This document shows positions 1 to 6,344 of a stretch of 64,000 nucleotides of DNA, piece by piece. Origin of the DNA: a bacterium D16-56. Its GTDB lineage: Bacteria; Bacillota; Clostridia; Lachnospirales; Lachnospiraceae. The position numbers and the translations under genes are program-made. The stretch is taken from positions 1-64,000 of the forward strand of contig RAYY01000021.1 in assembly GCA_003611875.1 (NCBI GenBank), given 5' to 3'. Position 1 is the first letter of the stretch, and every line of letters starts with the position of its first letter. Under the pieces are notes generated by a model, which saw only the letters and a program-made list of their open reading frames with translations, made no database searches and was not told the origin of the DNA.

Positions 1-90
1 GGATTCCGAACCGGCTGACAGCAGGTTCATAATAAATAATGTCGTTTGGAAGCATTCATGAAACAACCCTGGGCTCTCCTTCATTTCTAA

Positions 91-119
91 TGGAAAATAT
101 AATGAAATTGTGTTATAAT
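91..119 (+). promoter_or_regulatory. Extended -10 sigma-A promoter of the SLATT/STAND cassette
   Basis: The -10 TATAAT lies at 114-119 and is preceded by TG one base upstream (111-112), the extended -10 form. A weak -35 TGGAAA lies at 91-96 with a 17-bp spacer. Transcription would start near 126. That rules out the longest reading frame of the first gene, which begins at 39, and supports the TTG start at 180. Confidence 0.6.
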
Positions 120-179
120 AAATATAAGTATATCATTACATTAGTTAGGGCTATCATGTTTCGTGGGAGGTTTCATAGA

Positions 180-668
180 TTGAGTAATCAGAATGCAATT
201 GAACGAAATAAAATATTTTATGAGTGGGTTGAAGATATATCCAATGAAAAAACTAAGGGATACGTTAAGGAACGCATTATAAAGCAAATGGATTGGTACC
301 GTGAAAAGAGTGCTGCATATAAAATGAAATATCAAAGCTGGACAATGGTTTCCATTATTTTAAGCGGGACGATTCCGATTGCATCTGTATTGGCAGACGG
401 AGGACTGATTGTTAAAATATTGATTGCAGCGTTGGGTGCTGCCGTAACAAGTATTAATGCGTATTTAAATTTGCAGAATTACAAAGAACTGTGGAATGTT
501 TATCGGTTTAATCGTGAATGGCTTCTGAGTACATTATATTTGTATTTTAATAAAGTTGGTGTTTTTGGAGGAGAAATGAGTCAGGAAAATCGTGATATTA
601 TGCTCATTGAAATGTGTGAGAATTGTTTTCGGCAGGAGATAAGCGATTGGAGGAGCGGGGACAAATGA
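180..668 (+). CDS. DUF4231/SLATT-family two-TM protein, putative membrane effector
   Basis: 162 residues from a TTG at 180, which has GGGAGG at 165-170 nine bases upstream. The frame is open from 39, but the likely promoter lies inside that extension. The protein has a helical N-terminus, a QMDWYREK segment, two adjacent hydrophobic segments (roughly residues 55-75 and 80-100), then a NVYRFNREWL segment. This is the usual DUF4231 layout. The wider SLATT clan (2TM effectors associated with SMODS, SLOG and STAND proteins) is thought to permeabilise membranes when a sensor is triggered. It is the first gene of a three-gene same-strand cassette. Family assignment is by motif memory; the toxic role is inference. 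Confidence 0.7.
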   Translation: MSNQNAIERNKIFYEWVEDISNEKTKGYVKERIIKQMDWYREKSAAYKMKYQSWTMVSIILSGTIPIASVLADGGLIVKILIAALGAAVTSINAYLNLQNYKELWNVYRFNREWLLSTLYLYFNKVGVFGGEMSQENRDIMLIEMCENCFRQEISDWRSGDK

Positions 669-728
669 TTTTTGTATAATGAGGAATTTTTGTTTTGCGG
701 TGCAAAGCGGAAAGGCTGGATTACGGAT

Positions 729-1280
729 ATGAAGAAAGGTATAGAAAGGATTATCTCAAACAGGTATATTCAGGTTGCAATAGTTTGTCTGATTATGATG
801 AGTTTCATTGTTTTTTTCGGTTATTTTTTCTTGTTATCGGTTAGAACAGCGATACCTGCCGATTTGTTTTCTGCTTTGGTCAATATCATTGTGATTACTA
901 CTATAATTTTGAATATCATTGTAGTGATTTCTATGATTATTATGGCAGTTAAGATACTGGTTTATGGTATTGAGGTTAGGCATGATAAAACATATTGGGA
1001 AGTGGAAGTATGTACTCAGGTTATGGAAACAGAGAATAACCCTTATTGGCTGCCAGTAAGATACAATAATCCAATATTGCCATTTGTGATCGGGCTTGGA
1101 TGTTATATTGCGGTGCCTTGTTTTATATGGATTTACTATTTGCATTTTGAGCTTTCCGGGTTTATGCAGAAGGTTCTTTTTATCCTGATTGAATATGTGC
1201 TAATTGTGGCGATAGTAATTTTAATTCGTCTGGTTAGGCGCTTTCGGGCATTTGAGGTGAAATTGACGGAAAGAATTTAG
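729..1280 (+). CDS. Four-TM membrane protein of the cassette, unknown function
   Basis: 183 residues from ATG 729. A TTG at 672 would give 202 residues, but its spacing to the GGAGG near 650 is poor. Four hydrophobic helices can be seen, near residues 11-33, 44-73, 117-138 and 147-170. The first two form a long pair rich in I and V. Between the second and third is a soluble stretch with a KTYWEVEV core. I recognise no enzymatic motif. It lies 60 bases after the SLATT-type gene and 13 bases before the STAND gene, so it is probably co-transcribed and may form a membrane complex or act as partner or immunity factor. AT-rich like its neighbours. Confidence 0.65.
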   Translation: MKKGIERIISNRYIQVAIVCLIMMSFIVFFGYFFLLSVRTAIPADLFSALVNIIVITTIILNIIVVISMIIMAVKILVYGIEVRHDKTYWEVEVCTQVMETENNPYWLPVRYNNPILPFVIGLGCYIAVPCFIWIYYLHFELSGFMQKVLFILIEYVLIVAIVILIRLVRRFRAFEVKLTERI

Positions 1281-1293
1281 CAGGGTGATATTT

Positions 1294-4200
1294 ATGTTCC
1301 ACAAAATGGTTCGGATATTCGTTAGTTCTACTTTTTATAATTTTAAAAATGAGCGTGACGGGTTAGTTGCAGTATTTCAAGAGTTAAGTGAAGATTGCAA
1401 GTCAGCCGGATTTTCCTTTCAGGTATTGGATATGCGGTGGGGTATTTCTGATGAAGACAGCCAAAACAACCGCACGCTTCAGATTTGTTTTGATGAAATT
1501 ACACGTTGTCGAATGCTTTCTCCGAAACCTAATTTTCTGATTCTGTCAGGTTTATATTATGGATGGATTCCTCTTCCTTCTTTTATAACAAAATATGTTT
1601 GGGATAAGATTCAGGATGAAATTCAGGATGAAATTCCGGAATTTTCTCTATTGAGAAGCTGGTATCTCCATGACAAAAACGATGCAGAAGGTGTTTATAT
1701 TCTTCGGCCGCGTGATGACAATGAAGAAGATAGGAAAACAGATTGGAAAGAGATAGAAATATCTTTGAAAAAGGAGTTGTTTCCCCTTATTCAGAAACAC
1801 TTTTCGGATAAAAGCAAGTATTTTGAGCTTTTGGGGTTGTCTGCTACAGAGCAGGAAATATATAAAGGACTTTTTTGCCATCCAGAGGATAAGGAAAATG
1901 TCTTTGTGCTGGTGCGGACCAAAGAACCAGAGAGCTGTATTAAGCGGGAGTCGGAAGATGCGGCAGCCCATGCGGCGGCGCTTCAGACTCACCTGAAGGA
2001 TTATATGGGAGAGCTGATAGACGAAAATATGCTGTTCTATCAGCCGGGTGATGACTATACGGAGAAAGTCAAGGCTTTTTTGAAACGTGTGATTCGGTCT
2101 CGGATAGAGGAGGTTCAGATACAGGAGGCTGCACTTAGTCCGTTTCAGCGGGAACAGCGTTTGTTTGATGAGGCAGTCAGGCAGGCGGAGACGAACTATG
2201 TTGAAATAAATCATAGTCCGGATGATTTTTTGAGCTATTGCAAAAGTAATCTCGGAGGAATCACTCTGCTTACGGGTGTGTCAGGCAGCGGTAAAAGTAT
2301 GCTGTTAAGGCATTGTTACTATCTGGCCCATGGGATTTTTGTGCTTTCCTGCGCAGATATCCTGCCTTCTTGCAGCAGAGTATCCCATGCATTATGGTTC
2401 TGTCTAAAGCAGTTGGAAGCCAAAGGGATCTTAGGGGCTTTGGATGTGGAACCGGATGCGGAGCATTGTGCGGCATGGTTTGAAAAGCAATTAGAAGGCT
2501 TACGCAGCGACACGCAAGTAACCATATTGCTGGATTCTGTTGATCAGATCTGGGATTGGAATCAGATCGGAGGAAGTCTTTTAGAGTGTAAAATACCTCC
2601 AAATGTTACATTGGTTATTTGCTGTATTTCTGAGGACTCTCTTAATGAAAGAGACCGCGGAAGAATCGTTTCTTGTTATCGGCTCCAGCCATTAGAGGAG
2701 CATGATTCCATCTATCTGTTAAAGAGGATGCTGCATAAAAGAGGTCGGCTTTTGGGGGAGGATGACGAACAGATTATCCGAAAAGGTCTTCCAGAGGAAC
2801 CTACTCCTCTTTATATGCAATTATTGTGCCGACAGCTTCAAAGCAGGAGAAGCTTTGACAGCAGGCCCTTAATTCTGCCTGTGGGAACGAGGGAAAGCAT
2901 TTTCATGCAGCTAAAGGAACCAAGTCAAAATTATAGAAAGTTGTATAACCATGCCATTGGTTATCTGGCCTTGGCTGCAGATGGCCTGAGTGAGCAGGAG
3001 CTTTTGACATTGTTAGAAAAGGATGATCCGGTTCTTCAAGAGATAAAGCAGTATACACACTGGGAAATCAAGCAGGCTCGTTTTACCATTTCTGTGTTTT
3101 GGGCAAGAATTTATTATGATTTGAAAGATTATCTGTCGGAAGTAGACAGCAATGGTATCCTTTTGCTGCGCTTCCATCATGATTTAGTACGTCAAGTTGT
3201 CAAGGATATGGTTGGAAAAGATACGTTGCTGCAGCTTTCTTATGTTATGGGCAGTTACTTTTTGGAGGAACCAGTTTACCTAAATCGGACAAAGGATAAC
3301 AAGCTTGTCAACATTCGCAAGCTTCGGGAACTGATGCCTGCCTTGCGGTTCCAGGATGATTGGACTGCAGCGGCACGTGTGCTTGCTGATCCGGAATATG
3401 TGGATGGATATTTGCGATGCGGCTGGTATCGGGATTTGATGCAGCAGCTTACAGATCTTGGACAGCATAGATCTCTGAACGAGATACACAGGAAAATATT
3501 GGCGCTGCTTCAAGATAAGGCAATGCAATTTCAGCTTTGGGGTGACAGTTTTCTGCCTGCTGCTATGGAATCGGGTATATATCCCCAGAAAAACATGGAT
3601 AATACGGGATGGAAGTACATCCTTCGAAATCGTAAGCAGCCGGTATTGCGAGAAAATATCTGGAAAGATAAAATTCTGCTTCCCAATGCGGCAAATGTTA
3701 AACTTGCTGTAAAAGAGAACGGGGCATTGGCAATTTTGGAGGGGAAGGTACTGAAGCGGTACGATTTGAATCTTCGTTCTGAAATTTATCCGCGTTGTTA
3801 TGTAGATGTAGTGAATGCATTTTTGTACTGGAAGGGAGATTCTCTGTTTGTACGTGATAATTCCTGCAGGATTTCTTTTCTTGATACAGGCAGTGAATTA
3901 GTCCAGGTTCAAAAGGAATCATGCCGTCCTTTGGTGGATTTATATTCTGATGATATCAACAAGATAATACGTGCTGGTGGATTTGTCGAGCGAGATCATG
4001 CGGACTATTTTAAGGACACGGTATTTGAGTACTATTCACATGGAATGTTGAAAAGTACGGAATTATTTTACCCTGATGTAGAGGATATCAAATGTTTTTG
4101 TCATGGAGTTCTTTGCGCAGTGCTGCTTAATCAATGTAGATTGGATATTGTGGATTTAGAACAAAGGCTTTTGCTTGCCTCATATGCAGTACCGAATGCC

Positions 4201-5136
4201 TGTCTTGCGTACTGGAGCCCACAGGGAAAAGAGGTTTTAGTTGTGTTTGAAAGGGATAAGGTTCAGATGTTTTCTTACAGCTATAATCATTCGATGCCTT
4301 TGGCAGCGCCTTGTATGTCAATGAAAAAACATGAAAAAGCATATCGAACACGTGTGGGAAGAAGAGAAATACTGAAGATATTCCAGATGTCTTGTCCAAT
4401 GAACGGAAAAGATACTCCGGCATACTTTGGCAGCGTATTAGGAAGCAGACGTCCGATTTATGCGGCATTTTCTATAGCGGGAAACAGATTGGCGTGTTAT
4501 TACTATTACTTGAATCAAGGTGTTGTCCGTCTTTTTCGGCTCAATGATCGAAAATTATTAGCGGAAAGCACGGTGGATCCTATTTTTTGGAACGATTCTG
4601 TGGGGCGGCCAATTTATTTTGATGAGAATGGATGTGTACTGGTGTTAATCTCCAGAGGGAAAAAACATTTTTGGAAAATGGATTCGCTGAAATGGGAGCA
4701 TAATGTTAAAATGGCGTCAGACAGTCAGACAGGATTTTCTCAGGAACTGCAGGAAAAGTATTTCAGGTGTGTGAAGCCGTGGCTGCCGGTTAGAAACAGA
4801 GGTATTTCTCCGCATAGGAAGGGTATTTTGGATGTTATACGTCAAATAATAATGTTCGTGTTATTGCCGATTATTTGCAGTCAACAGCCTGACAGGGACA
4901 GCGATGGGTTATTGTGTCAAAGCATGCAGCAGATACCCGTTGTGGAAAGTGGCAGCTTTTGGTGGATATTAGACTGCTATCACGGCATGATTCATGTCTG
5001 TGATCAAAATGGATATTGGGTTTGTCATGAGCAGCTGCAGGAGGAAATATTTGATTTCAATGTAATCGGCCGCAAGGTGTATGTATTGCCGACAGATTTG
5101 TCGGATCCGGTAGAACTGGATCTTGTCTCTGTTTAA
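1294..5136 (+). CDS. DUF4062-STAND (NACHT-like) NTPase with long C-terminal sensor region
   Basis: 1280 residues from ATG 1294, six bases after an AGGGTG ribosome site; a GTG at 1285 is possible but poorly spaced. Residues about 5-110 are a DUF4062 domain (VRIFVSST at the start, then MRWGI). This TIR-like module is known at the N-terminus of eukaryotic NPHP3, NWD1 and TEP1. A P-loop GVSGSGKS lies near residue 328 and a Walker B ILLDSVDQ near 406, the STAND form. Helical winged-helix-type sequence follows to about 760. The last 500 residues are beta-rich and propeller-like without clear WD repeats. A hydrophobic stretch lies near residue 1180. By family, such proteins are oligomerising sensors. 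Here it probably senses a trigger and drives the upstream membrane proteins (inference). Confidence 0.75.
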   Translation: MFHKMVRIFVSSTFYNFKNERDGLVAVFQELSEDCKSAGFSFQVLDMRWGISDEDSQNNRTLQICFDEITRCRMLSPKPNFLILSGLYYGWIPLPSFITKYVWDKIQDEIQDEIPEFSLLRSWYLHDKNDAEGVYILRPRDDNEEDRKTDWKEIEISLKKELFPLIQKHFSDKSKYFELLGLSATEQEIYKGLFCHPEDKENVFVLVRTKEPESCIKRESEDAAAHAAALQTHLKDYMGELIDENMLFYQPGDDYTEKVKAFLKRVIRSRIEEVQIQEAALSPFQREQRLFDEAVRQAETNYVEINHSPDDFLSYCKSNLGGITLLTGVSGSGKSMLLRHCYYLAHGIFVLSCADILPSCSRVSHALWFCLKQLEAKGILGALDVEPDAEHCAAWFEKQLEGLRSDTQVTILLDSVDQIWDWNQIGGSLLECKIPPNVTLVICCISEDSLNERDRGRIVSCYRLQPLEEHDSIYLLKRMLHKRGRLLGEDDEQIIRKGLPEEPTPLYMQLLCRQLQSRRSFDSRPLILPVGTRESIFMQLKEPSQNYRKLYNHAIGYLALAADGLSEQELLTLLEKDDPVLQEIKQYTHWEIKQARFTISVFWARIYYDLKDYLSEVDSNGILLLRFHHDLVRQVVKDMVGKDTLLQLSYVMGSYFLEEPVYLNRTKDNKLVNIRKLRELMPALRFQDDWTAAARVLADPEYVDGYLRCGWYRDLMQQLTDLGQHRSLNEIHRKILALLQDKAMQFQLWGDSFLPAAMESGIYPQKNMDNTGWKYILRNRKQPVLRENIWKDKILLPNAANVKLAVKENGALAILEGKVLKRYDLNLRSEIYPRCYVDVVNAFLYWKGDSLFVRDNSCRISFLDTGSELVQVQKESCRPLVDLYSDDINKIIRAGGFVERDHADYFKDTVFEYYSHGMLKSTELFYPDVEDIKCFCHGVLCAVLLNQCRLDIVDLEQRLLLASYAVPNACLAYWSPQGKEVLVVFERDKVQMFSYSYNHSMPLAAPCMSMKKHEKAYRTRVGRREILKIFQMSCPMNGKDTPAYFGSVLGSRRPIYAAFSIAGNRLACYYYYLNQGVVRLFRLNDRKLLAESTVDPIFWNDSVGRPIYFDENGCVLVLISRGKKHFWKMDSLKWEHNVKMASDSQTGFSQELQEKYFRCVKPWLPVRNRGISPHRKGILDVIRQIIMFVLLPIICSQQPDRDSDGLLCQSMQQIPVVESGSFWWILDCYHGMIHVCDQNGYWVCHEQLQEEIFDFNVIGRKVYVLPTDLSDPVELDLVSV

Positions 5137-5290
5137 GTGGAACTATAGGTTATCAGAAATAGTTACTGTTTAGTGATTGGCTGAAATAAATTAGCGGACC
5201 ATGTGAAATCAATGACAGGGTATGTTAAGGGAGCTGTGTAAAGTAAGAAATGATTGGACGGAAGATATGCTGTCATGCAAAAATTTATCG

Positions 5291-5319
5291 TTGCTATCTT
5301 TTGCCAAATATATTATGAT
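5291..5319 (+). promoter_or_regulatory. Probable sigma-A promoter of the fructokinase gene
   Basis: TTGCTA at 5291-5296, 17-bp spacer, TATGAT at 5314-5319. Transcription would start near 5326, 41 bases before the gene. The 230-bp gap after the STAND gene is AT-rich. It marks the change from the accessory cassette to core-like sequence. Confidence 0.5.
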
Positions 5320-5366
5320 AGGAAAAGAAAATGGCAATACATATTTGTTAATGGAGGAGGAGTATT

Positions 5367-6344
5367 ATGAAACGTTTGCTGGCAATCGGAGAAGCATTGA
5401 TTGATTTTATTCCGGCGGAATCCGGAAAAGAGATGAAGCAGGTGTCTGCCTTTGCGCCTGCAGTGGGAGGTGCGCCTGCCAATGTATGCGGAGCTTATGT
5501 GAAGCTGGGCGGGAAGGCGTCCATGATTACCCAGCTTGGAGATGATCCCTTTGGGGATAAGATTGCGGATGAGTTTGCTGCCTGCGGTATTGGATGTGAG
5601 TATGTGAAGCGCACGAGAGAGGCCAATACTTCTCTTGCTTTTGTGGCCTTAAAGGAGGACGGGAACCGGGAGTTTTCTTTTTATCGCAAGCCGGGGGCGG
5701 ACATGCTGATGAAGGCAGATGATATTCAGGAAAGCTGGTTTTCGGATATTTTCGGCCTTCACTTCTGTTCGGTGTCTTTGGGGGACTTTCCCATGAAGGA
5801 AGCTCATCGGCAGGCAGTCCGGTATGCGTCAGAGGCCGGGGCATTAGTAAGCTTTGACCCAAATCTGCGGTTTGCTCTTTGGGAGGATGTGGAGGCGCTT
5901 AAAAGGGTGGTTCGCGAATTTGCACCTATGGCTCATGTGCTGAAGGTGTCGGATGAGGAGCTGGAGTTTATTACAGGTTCAGGGGATATTAAGGAGGCGC
6001 TTCCTCAGCTTTTGACGGGAAAGACCCGTTTGGTGATTTATACCAAGGGATCTGACGGAGCGGAATGCTATACACGCCGGGCCAGCGGGTTTGCACCTGG
6101 GGAAAAGGTGCAGGCAGTGGATACGACAGGTGCAGGGGACGGATTTATTGGCTCGTTTTTGTACTGCCTTTCTGAAGATGGTGTAACGGCGGATACCTTG
6201 GATGACTTGACAGAGGAACAGATGAAGCGGTATCTGGCTTTTGCCAATCGATTCTGCGGCAGAAGTGTAATGGGGCATGGCGCGATTGCGTCTTATCCTT
6301 CCAGGGAGGAAATGGGTTATACTAGCGCCGGGCAGCAGGGGTAA
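5367..6344 (+). CDS. scrK: Fructokinase / PfkB-family sugar kinase
   Basis: 325 residues from ATG 5367 with an excellent GGAGGAGG site. The N-terminus (GEALIDFIP) and the GGAPANV motif are typical of PfkB fructokinases. The C-terminal signature DTTGAGDGF supplies the anion hole and catalytic Asp near residue 255. It phosphorylates fructose, or a related ketose, to the 6-phosphate with ATP in the cytoplasm. It appears to be a single gene with its own promoter. A GH32 enzyme and a broken sucrose-type PTS lie 48 kb away. Substrate choice within the PfkB family is inferred. Confidence 0.85.
   Translation: MKRLLAIGEALIDFIPAESGKEMKQVSAFAPAVGGAPANVCGAYVKLGGKASMITQLGDDPFGDKIADEFAACGIGCEYVKRTREANTSLAFVALKEDGNREFSFYRKPGADMLMKADDIQESWFSDIFGLHFCSVSLGDFPMKEAHRQAVRYASEAGALVSFDPNLRFALWEDVEALKRVVREFAPMAHVLKVSDEELEFITGSGDIKEALPQLLTGKTRLVIYTKGSDGAECYTRRASGFAPGEKVQAVDTTGAGDGFIGSFLYCLSEDGVTADTLDDLTEEQMKRYLAFANRFCGRSVMGHGAIASYPSREEMGYTSAGQQG

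What the first reader, a model, noticed from the sequence alone, without database searches (positions are those of the whole stretch)
91..5136. Three-gene SLATT + four-TM + DUF4062-STAND cassette: candidate undescribed defence system
Seen: a two-TM DUF4231/SLATT protein, a four-TM protein and a 1280-residue protein with an N-terminal DUF4062 domain, a P-loop (GVSGSGKS), a STAND Walker B (LLDSVDQ) and a 500-residue beta-rich tail, all on one strand with tight spacing, their own promoter and AT-richer sequence than the core genes that follow. Known: STAND NTPases sense phage proteins (Avs, bNACHT), SLATT proteins are proposed pore-formers, and DUF4062 is TIR-like. Inference: the STAND protein senses infection and triggers the membrane proteins or an N-terminal NAD/nucleotide activity. 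I do not recall this exact combination as a named system.
Basis: partly seen in the sequence, partly recalled or inferred. Interest (0 to 1): 0.88.

Follow-up and report, generated by a model that had tools for sequence, protein, structure and literature searches.

The report
Bacterial TEP1-like switch with membrane partner
A bacterium carries a large switch protein built in the same order as the human vault protein TEP1, with a probable NAD-destroying front end and a membrane protein encoded just before it; it is probably a suicide-type defence against viruses, and the third gene that was noticed looks like a local extra.

Summary
The three genes are real: SLATT_1 (180-668), a four-TM protein (729-1280) and a 1280-aa DUF4062-STAND protein (1294-5136); the promoter at 91-119 is well supported.

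The recurring unit is smaller than proposed. I found the STAND family in four other genomes. In 5 of 5 loci a multi-TM gene lies directly upstream, against 1 of 15 other DUF4062 loci. SLATT fills the next slot in 1 of the 4 loci where that slot is visible. Only the window and L002 membrane proteins are recognisably related.

The DUF4062 domain is of the human TEP1 type (TEP1 structure E 7e-37, KpSwz 0.025). The place of the TEP1 catalytic Glu, E188, is kept in 5 of 5. Behind it come a NACHT-like NTPase, an NWD1-type winged helix (weak, three members) and a tail with weak propeller matches: the TEP1/NWD1 order.

A May 2026 preprint (PMC13174449, read in part) shows DUF4062 to be a TIR-like NADase in phage defence (Swarozyc) and in TEP1. 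So the effector chemistry is described; this STAND subfamily with a membrane partner is a new variant.

Function is inferred; two of three TEP1 pocket Arg are Tyr here, so NADase activity is uncertain.

The parts
1..71 (.). End of a repeated, probably mobile element at the contig edge
   Evidence: Exact 71-mer at six contig ends of G000, all reading inward, diverging at base 72
91..119 (+). Promoter of the operon (-35 TGGAAA, -10 TATAAT)
   Evidence: Consensus scan; -35 starts 20 nt after the repeat end, as in the five other copies (19-20 nt)
180..668 (+). SLATT_1 / DUF4231 membrane protein (TTG start); first gene, not conserved with the others
   Evidence: neighbours
729..1280 (+). Four-TM membrane protein, partner of the STAND protein
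   Evidence: Four hydropathy peaks; low-confidence model with four long helices (pLDDT 59.5); 44% identical homologue in the same place in L002
1294..5136 (+). DUF4062-STAND protein, 1280 aa, TEP1/NWD1-like order of domains
1294..2133 (+). DUF4062 (TIR-like) domain, about aa 1-280
   Evidence: Pfam aa 7-92; alignment of A4 to human TEP1 TIR-like domain 11gz_A over chain residues 4-218
1855..1857 (+). Codon of E188, place of the TEP1 catalytic Glu E1008
   Evidence: Hand count on the alignment; SATEQE in 5 of 5 family members; E188 invariant in 7 of 7 domains
2275..2298 (+). Walker A, GVSGSGKS
2524..2547 (+). Walker B, ILLDSVDQ
2926..3183 (+). NWD1-type winged-helix region, about aa 545-630 (placed from relatives)
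   Evidence: PF25469 in L029 (9.2e-5), L030 (3e-4), L092 (0.019), all below cut-off; no match in the window protein itself
3661..5133 (+). C-terminal tail, probable beta-propeller sensor
   Evidence: Sub-cut-off matches of relatives to COPA/B second propeller, ANAPC4_WD40 and TFIIIC_delta propeller; AlphaFold failed

Best explanation
A two-gene immune module, membrane protein plus STAND switch, with an extra SLATT gene at the head of the operon in this genome. The STAND protein is a bacterial protein of the TEP1/NWD1 kind. At rest its C-terminal tail holds the NACHT-like NTPase monomeric (inferred from APAF-1). An infection signal, perhaps a phage structural protein, reaches the tail or the membrane partner; the NTPase exchanges nucleotide and oligomerises (inferred); the clustered DUF4062 domains become active and hydrolyse NAD+, so that the cell stops before phage are made (shown for DUF4062 of KpSwz and, as enzyme, of TEP1; inferred here). 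The upstream membrane protein holds the switch at the membrane, or senses or adds membrane damage (inferred only from its constant place).
For: DUF4062 over cut-off in 4 of 5 members scanned as whole proteins or main pieces (window, L002, L029, L092; the L030 piece scanned lacks the domain's start). TEP1 TIR-like structure matched at E 1e-9 by the window domain alone and 7e-37 by a seven-domain profile. Catalytic Glu place kept in 5 of 5, Walker A in 5 of 5. NWD1-type winged helix and propeller matches in relatives. Multi-TM gene directly upstream in 5 of 5 against 1 of 15 other DUF4062 loci (Fisher 4e-4, or 0.002 with near-copies counted once). Rare, patchy spread over two families of one order, and poor G+C. 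DUF4062 defence activity: PMC13174449.
Against: No defence gene was identified beside it in the window, and no experiment exists for this family. Of the three Arg of the TEP1 pocket only R954 has its counterpart (R60); R908 and R976 are Y15 and Y88, and Ala there lowers TEP1 activity. NWD1, NWD2 and NPHP3, of the same order, showed no NADase activity (PMC13174449). The tail fold is not confirmed. Three of five membrane partners are not recognisably related to the window's. The upstream rule was seen first and tested afterwards, on controls that I happened to have fetched.
Confidence: 0.45

Rival explanations
1. One three-gene system: SLATT is a pore-forming effector, the four-TM protein assists, the STAND protein sets both off.
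For: SLATT is the first gene behind the operon's own promoter, on the same strand, 60 nt before the four-TM gene. SLATT genes join other defence systems: L025 has SLATT_1 63 nt after an RdrB-like ORF, and RADAR variants with SLATT are reported (PMC11676413, passages).
Against: Absent from the slot in L002, L030 and L092; no other close SLATT_1/DUF4062 pair in 195 relatives.
Confidence: 0.22
2. DUF4062 is here a non-enzymatic signalling or oligomerising domain, as may hold for NWD1/NWD2/NPHP3, and the membrane protein is the true effector that depolarises the cell.
For: Y15 and Y88 in place of two pocket Arg; the membrane gene is constant in place and evolves faster (dN 0.47 against 0.20).
Against: E188 is kept in 5 of 5; Arg stands at the R976 place in L029, L030 and L092 and at the R908 place in L029, so at least L029 looks complete apart from its BB-loop Arg.
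Confidence: 0.22
3. The membrane protein is an inhibitor or immunity partner that keeps a toxic STAND NADase silent, as in a toxin-antitoxin pair.
For: Directly upstream in 5 of 5, gaps of -11 to 36 nt, fast divergence.
Against: Partners of L029, L030 and L092 are not recognisably related to the window's, odd for proteins that must bind one conserved switch.
Confidence: 0.08
4. Not phage defence: a membrane-linked NAD+ or stress regulator of the host.
For: No defence island is seen in the window; downstream genes look like core genes by eye (ffh and ribosomal genes).
Against: Rare and patchy: long matches in 0 to 2 genomes per search beyond the own one; low G+C; next to a mobile-element end.
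Confidence: 0.13

Closest known systems
TEP1, NWD1, NWD2 and NPHP3 (eukaryotic DUF4062-NACHT proteins; PMC13174449)
   Same: Order DUF4062 - NACHT - helical - (WD40); DUF4062 aligns with TEP1 over the whole domain, catalytic Glu in place; NWD1-type winged helix in relatives.
   Different: Bacterial, with a membrane gene upstream; two of three TEP1 pocket Arg are not kept; propeller not confirmed; no vault part.
Swarozyc (KpSwz; PMC13174449, PDB 10wc)
   Same: DUF4062 as N-terminal domain; likely NADase-driven abortive defence.
   Different: KpSwz chain is 326 residues with a winged-helix AUX domain and no NTPase; its DUF4062 matches the profile only at its N-terminus (0.025).
Avs and bNACHT STAND defence proteins (recalled; PADLOC-DB tested)
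   Same: Large STAND NTPase with an N-terminal effector domain and a C-terminal sensor.
   Different: No match beyond P-loop scores of 11-15 bits to mad3, NsnB and mad8 in PADLOC-DB 2.0.0.
RADAR with SLATT accessory gene (PMC11676413, passages)
   Same: Same SLATT_1 family as window 180-668.
   Different: There SLATT follows RdrB (L025); here it heads a STAND operon.

Membership tests
DUF4062 (TIR-like NADase domain) | Profile match over the curated cut-off | tested here: met
   32.6 bits against 24.7
DUF4062 (TIR-like NADase domain) | Catalytic Glu (TEP1 E1008) | tested here: met
   E188 by hand count; kept in 5 of 5
DUF4062 (TIR-like NADase domain) | Pocket Arg R908, R954 and R976 of TEP1 | tested here: not met
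   Y15, R60, Y88: one of three kept. These Arg are known to matter for TEP1; whether they define the family is not known
DUF4062 (TIR-like NADase domain) | NADase activity | not testable with these tools
   Needs an assay
TEP1/NWD1-type STAND protein | DUF4062 followed by NACHT NTPase | tested here: met
   Walker A and B at aa 328-335 and 411-418; NACHT 15.6 bits, below its cut-off
TEP1/NWD1-type STAND protein | NWD1-type winged helix | tested here: inconclusive
   Below cut-off in L029, L030 and L092; no match in window or L002
TEP1/NWD1-type STAND protein | WD40 propellers (not in NPHP3) | tested here: inconclusive
   Weak propeller matches in relatives; AlphaFold failed; no clear internal repeat
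Swarozyc | DUF4062 plus short winged-helix AUX domain that binds the portal | tested here: not met
   Profile A4 matches KpSwz only at its N-terminus; the window protein has an NTPase and a long tail instead
SLATT_1 | Profile match over the curated cut-off | tested here: met
   88.2 bits against 41
Avs / bNACHT | Match to catalogued STAND defence models | tested here: not met
   Only P-loop matches of 11-15 bits in PADLOC-DB 2.0.0

The most novel reading that the evidence does not exclude
A membrane-coupled bacterial NLR family of the TEP1/NWD1 type, in which one conserved NADase switch is wired to exchangeable, fast-evolving membrane proteins that read phage action at the membrane or finish the cell there. 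It would be a bacterial counterpart of the whole TEP1 switch and not only of its effector domain.
Probability: 0.3. Interest if true: 0.72.

Novelty: new variant of a known kind. Interest (0 to 1): 0.52.

Why it matters
TEP1 was reported to be an NADase only in 2026 and its trigger is unknown (PMC13174449). A bacterial protein with the same order of domains and a constant membrane neighbour would let such a switch be studied with phage genetics: what the tail senses, whether the NTPase gates DUF4062, and why a membrane protein is needed. It would also extend DUF4062 defence from the compact Swarozyc type to NLR-type receptors.

Tried and rejected
Three-gene cassette as the unit: rejected for SLATT. 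The absence in L002, L030 and L092 rests on ORF lists and on a tblastn that also misses the SLATT_1 gene of L025, so a diverged SLATT further upstream is not excluded; L002 and L092 show only 521 and 482 nt before the membrane gene, and L029 shows nothing. The genomes of L029, L030 and L092 were not in the 195.

Common two-TM module in all five membrane partners: the alignment hinted at it; segment-preserving shuffles did not support it (L092-L030: 74 of 1000 as good; L029-L030: 130; the seven other cross pairs: 461-779; window-L002: 0).

First version of the upstream control placed one start wrongly (L010) and gave none for L097; repeated with stated starts, same result: 5 of 5 and 1 of 15. 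The 15 controls are the DUF4062 loci whose surroundings I had fetched, not a random draw; L031/L032 and L009/L098 are near-copies, L011 is cut by its contig end and not shown to be STAND.

Empty site: nine genus-mates have fructokinase orthologues at 85-89%. In the ten neighbourhoods fetched the gene upstream differs in most (L072 and L076 share a cluster), and shared sequence begins at window 5276-5366, so no clean empty site.

Tail fold: AlphaFold with two sequences failed; the four-TM model is low confidence; no fold search was run on either. Profile self-comparison gave no off-diagonal match better than E 0.02.

Relatives in phages, plasmids and viral contigs: none, except DUF4062-only matches in 2 plasmids. 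Genome sets overlap between calls, so their counts cannot be added.

Source of the 71-bp repeat: not found in 144 other relatives; its transposase is not in view.

Paper search returned words that merely begin with 'slatt', and one search for 'Swarozyc' returned nothing although the preprint holds the name, so neither tells anything about absence.
Full report
What is there. Three genes lie on the plus strand at the very start of contig G000:C115: SLATT_1 at 180-668, a four-TM protein at 729-1280 and a 1280-residue DUF4062-STAND protein at 1294-5136, with gaps of 60 and 13 nt. SLATT_1/DUF4231 and DUF4062 are over their curated cut-offs; the NTPase matches AAA_22, AAA_16 and NACHT below cut-off; the four-TM protein matches nothing over cut-off. 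The genes are poorer in G+C (0.36, 0.35, 0.42) than 5367-64000 (0.485).

Promoter and left edge. Window 1-71 recurs exactly at six contig ends of the same genome, always reading inward, with divergence at base 72. In 6 of 6 a sigma-A-like promoter pair (9 to 12 of 12 matches) follows, its -35 starting 19-20 nt after the repeat; the summed score was 63 against a shuffle mean of 37.7 and a maximum of 49 in 5000 mononucleotide shuffles. TnGBS elements insert 15-17 bp upstream of sigma-A promoters, a habit shared by ISLre2 and part of ISKra4 (PMC3942029, passages read). The left edge is therefore probably such an element, though no transposase is in view, and the promoter at 91-119 is probably real. 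SLATT then is the first gene of its operon and not the tail of another. What lies further left cannot be seen.

Relatives of the STAND protein. A scan of the species genomes with exact peptide patterns found one, L002, a Lachnospiraceae MAG, 69% identical over the whole length. Profile searches added G402 (L029, 32-33%) and G297 (L030, 34% over the piece aligned) among 344 genomes of the order (2 of 48 in their own family), and G862 (L092, 35%, intact frame) among 397 genomes of the family. The remaining matches in these calls, in the 150-genome family sample and in the 299-genome phylum sample covered only DUF4062, only the NTPase region, or both in proteins of other make-up. The STAND genes of L029 and L030 are broken by frame changes. 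No relative was found in phages or viral contigs, and only DUF4062 matches in 2 plasmids.

Neighbours. In L002 the gene 13 nt upstream is a four-TM homologue, 44% identical; before it lies the end of a Hypoth_Ymh gene (43.4 bits against 25). In L092 the gene upstream codes for 299 aa with six hydropathy peaks and overlaps by 11 nt; in L029 for a protein with five peaks, overlapping by 4 nt and cut by the contig end; in L030 for an 80-aa two-TM protein 36 nt away. So 5 of 5 members have a multi-TM gene directly upstream, against 1 of 15 other DUF4062 loci (L094, two peaks, at a contig edge): Fisher 4e-4, or 0.002 with near-copies and the window/L002 pair counted once. The rule was noticed before it was tested and the controls are a convenience set. 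The membrane proteins of L029, L030 and L092 are not recognisably related to that of the window. SLATT stands before the membrane gene in 1 of 4 visible cases. Of 195 relatives, 17 have a DUF4062 match and 16 a SLATT_1 match (14 and 3 over cut-off); two have both, and only G000 has them close together.

The DUF4062 domain. Among PDB sequences the window domain finds only the human TEP1 TIR-like domain, 11gz_A (E 1e-9, limit 0.1). A profile of seven DUF4062 domains from this genome and relatives aligns to its whole length (7e-37) and to KpSwz only at the N-terminus (0.025). By hand count on these alignments (chain offset 893, which fits R908, R954 and R976), TEP1 E1008 falls on window E188 in SATEQE, present in 5 of 5 family members; E188 is invariant in the seven domains. 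Of the three pocket Arg, R954 corresponds to R60 (kept in 4 of 5, not L029), R908 to Y15 (Arg only in L029) and R976 to Y88 (Arg in L029, L030 and L092). Ala at R908 or R976 lowers TEP1 activity, and NWD1, NWD2 and NPHP3 showed none (PMC13174449). Catalysis by the window protein is therefore likely but not safe.

The rest of the STAND protein. Relatives match NPHP3_N (L029 3.1e-5, L092 0.025) and the NWD1-like winged helix (L029 9.2e-5, L030 3e-4, L092 0.019), and in the tail COPA/B second propeller (L030 5.4e-4), ANAPC4_WD40 (L030, L092) and TFIIIC_delta propeller models, all below cut-off. Together this suggests DUF4062 - NACHT - winged helix - helical - probable propeller, the order the preprint gives for TEP1 and NWD1. 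AlphaFold could not confirm the tail (pLDDT 31.5).

Mechanism. Shown elsewhere: DUF4062 hydrolyses NAD+ in KpSwz and TEP1; KpSwz gives abortive infection and is set off by a phage portal (PMC13174449). Shown here: the kept Glu and P-loop, the TEP1-type domain, the constant membrane neighbour, and constraint on both genes with the membrane gene changing faster (dN 0.47 against 0.20, dS about 1.3). Inferred: sensing by the tail, NTPase-driven clustering, NAD+ loss, and the role of the membrane protein.

Known or new. Searches of the open library for DUF4062 with STAND, defence or phage, for NACHT/TIR/SLATT/DUF4062 and for NWD1/TEP1/NACHT list one work on DUF4062 in bacterial defence, the May 2026 preprint. 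It mentions auxiliary domains and operons in supplementary figures that I could not see, so this architecture may already be listed there. A search joining STAND NTPase, antiphage, membrane protein, propeller and NADase found none. I file the finding as a new variant of a known kind.

Noticed in passing
window 1-71; L101-L105: End of a repeat at six contig ends of this genome, each 19-20 nt before the -35 of a promoter-like pair: looks like a TnGBS/ISLre2/ISKra4-type element with promoter targeting (PMC3942029 passages).
   Followed up: partly
L025 1429-3300: SLATT_1 gene 63 nt after an ORF that matches RADAR RdrB (3.5e-34 in PADLOC).
   Followed up: partly
window 5367-6344; L069-L078: Fructokinase-like gene with orthologues at 85-89% in nine genus-mates but with different upstream neighbours in most: a gene that seems to move alone with its promoter.
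   Followed up: partly
L031 7133-9994; L032 9870-12731: Bacterial DUF4062 - NACHT - NPHP3-type helical - TPR protein (NPHP3_hel at its cut-off in L031), divergent from an lgt-like gene, without a membrane gene upstream.
   Followed up: no
L094 2-4427: Another large DUF4062 protein with a two-TM gene 55 nt upstream at a contig edge: the single control that behaves like the family.
   Followed up: no
L002 249-422: End of a Hypoth_Ymh gene just before the four-TM/STAND pair in L002.
   Followed up: no
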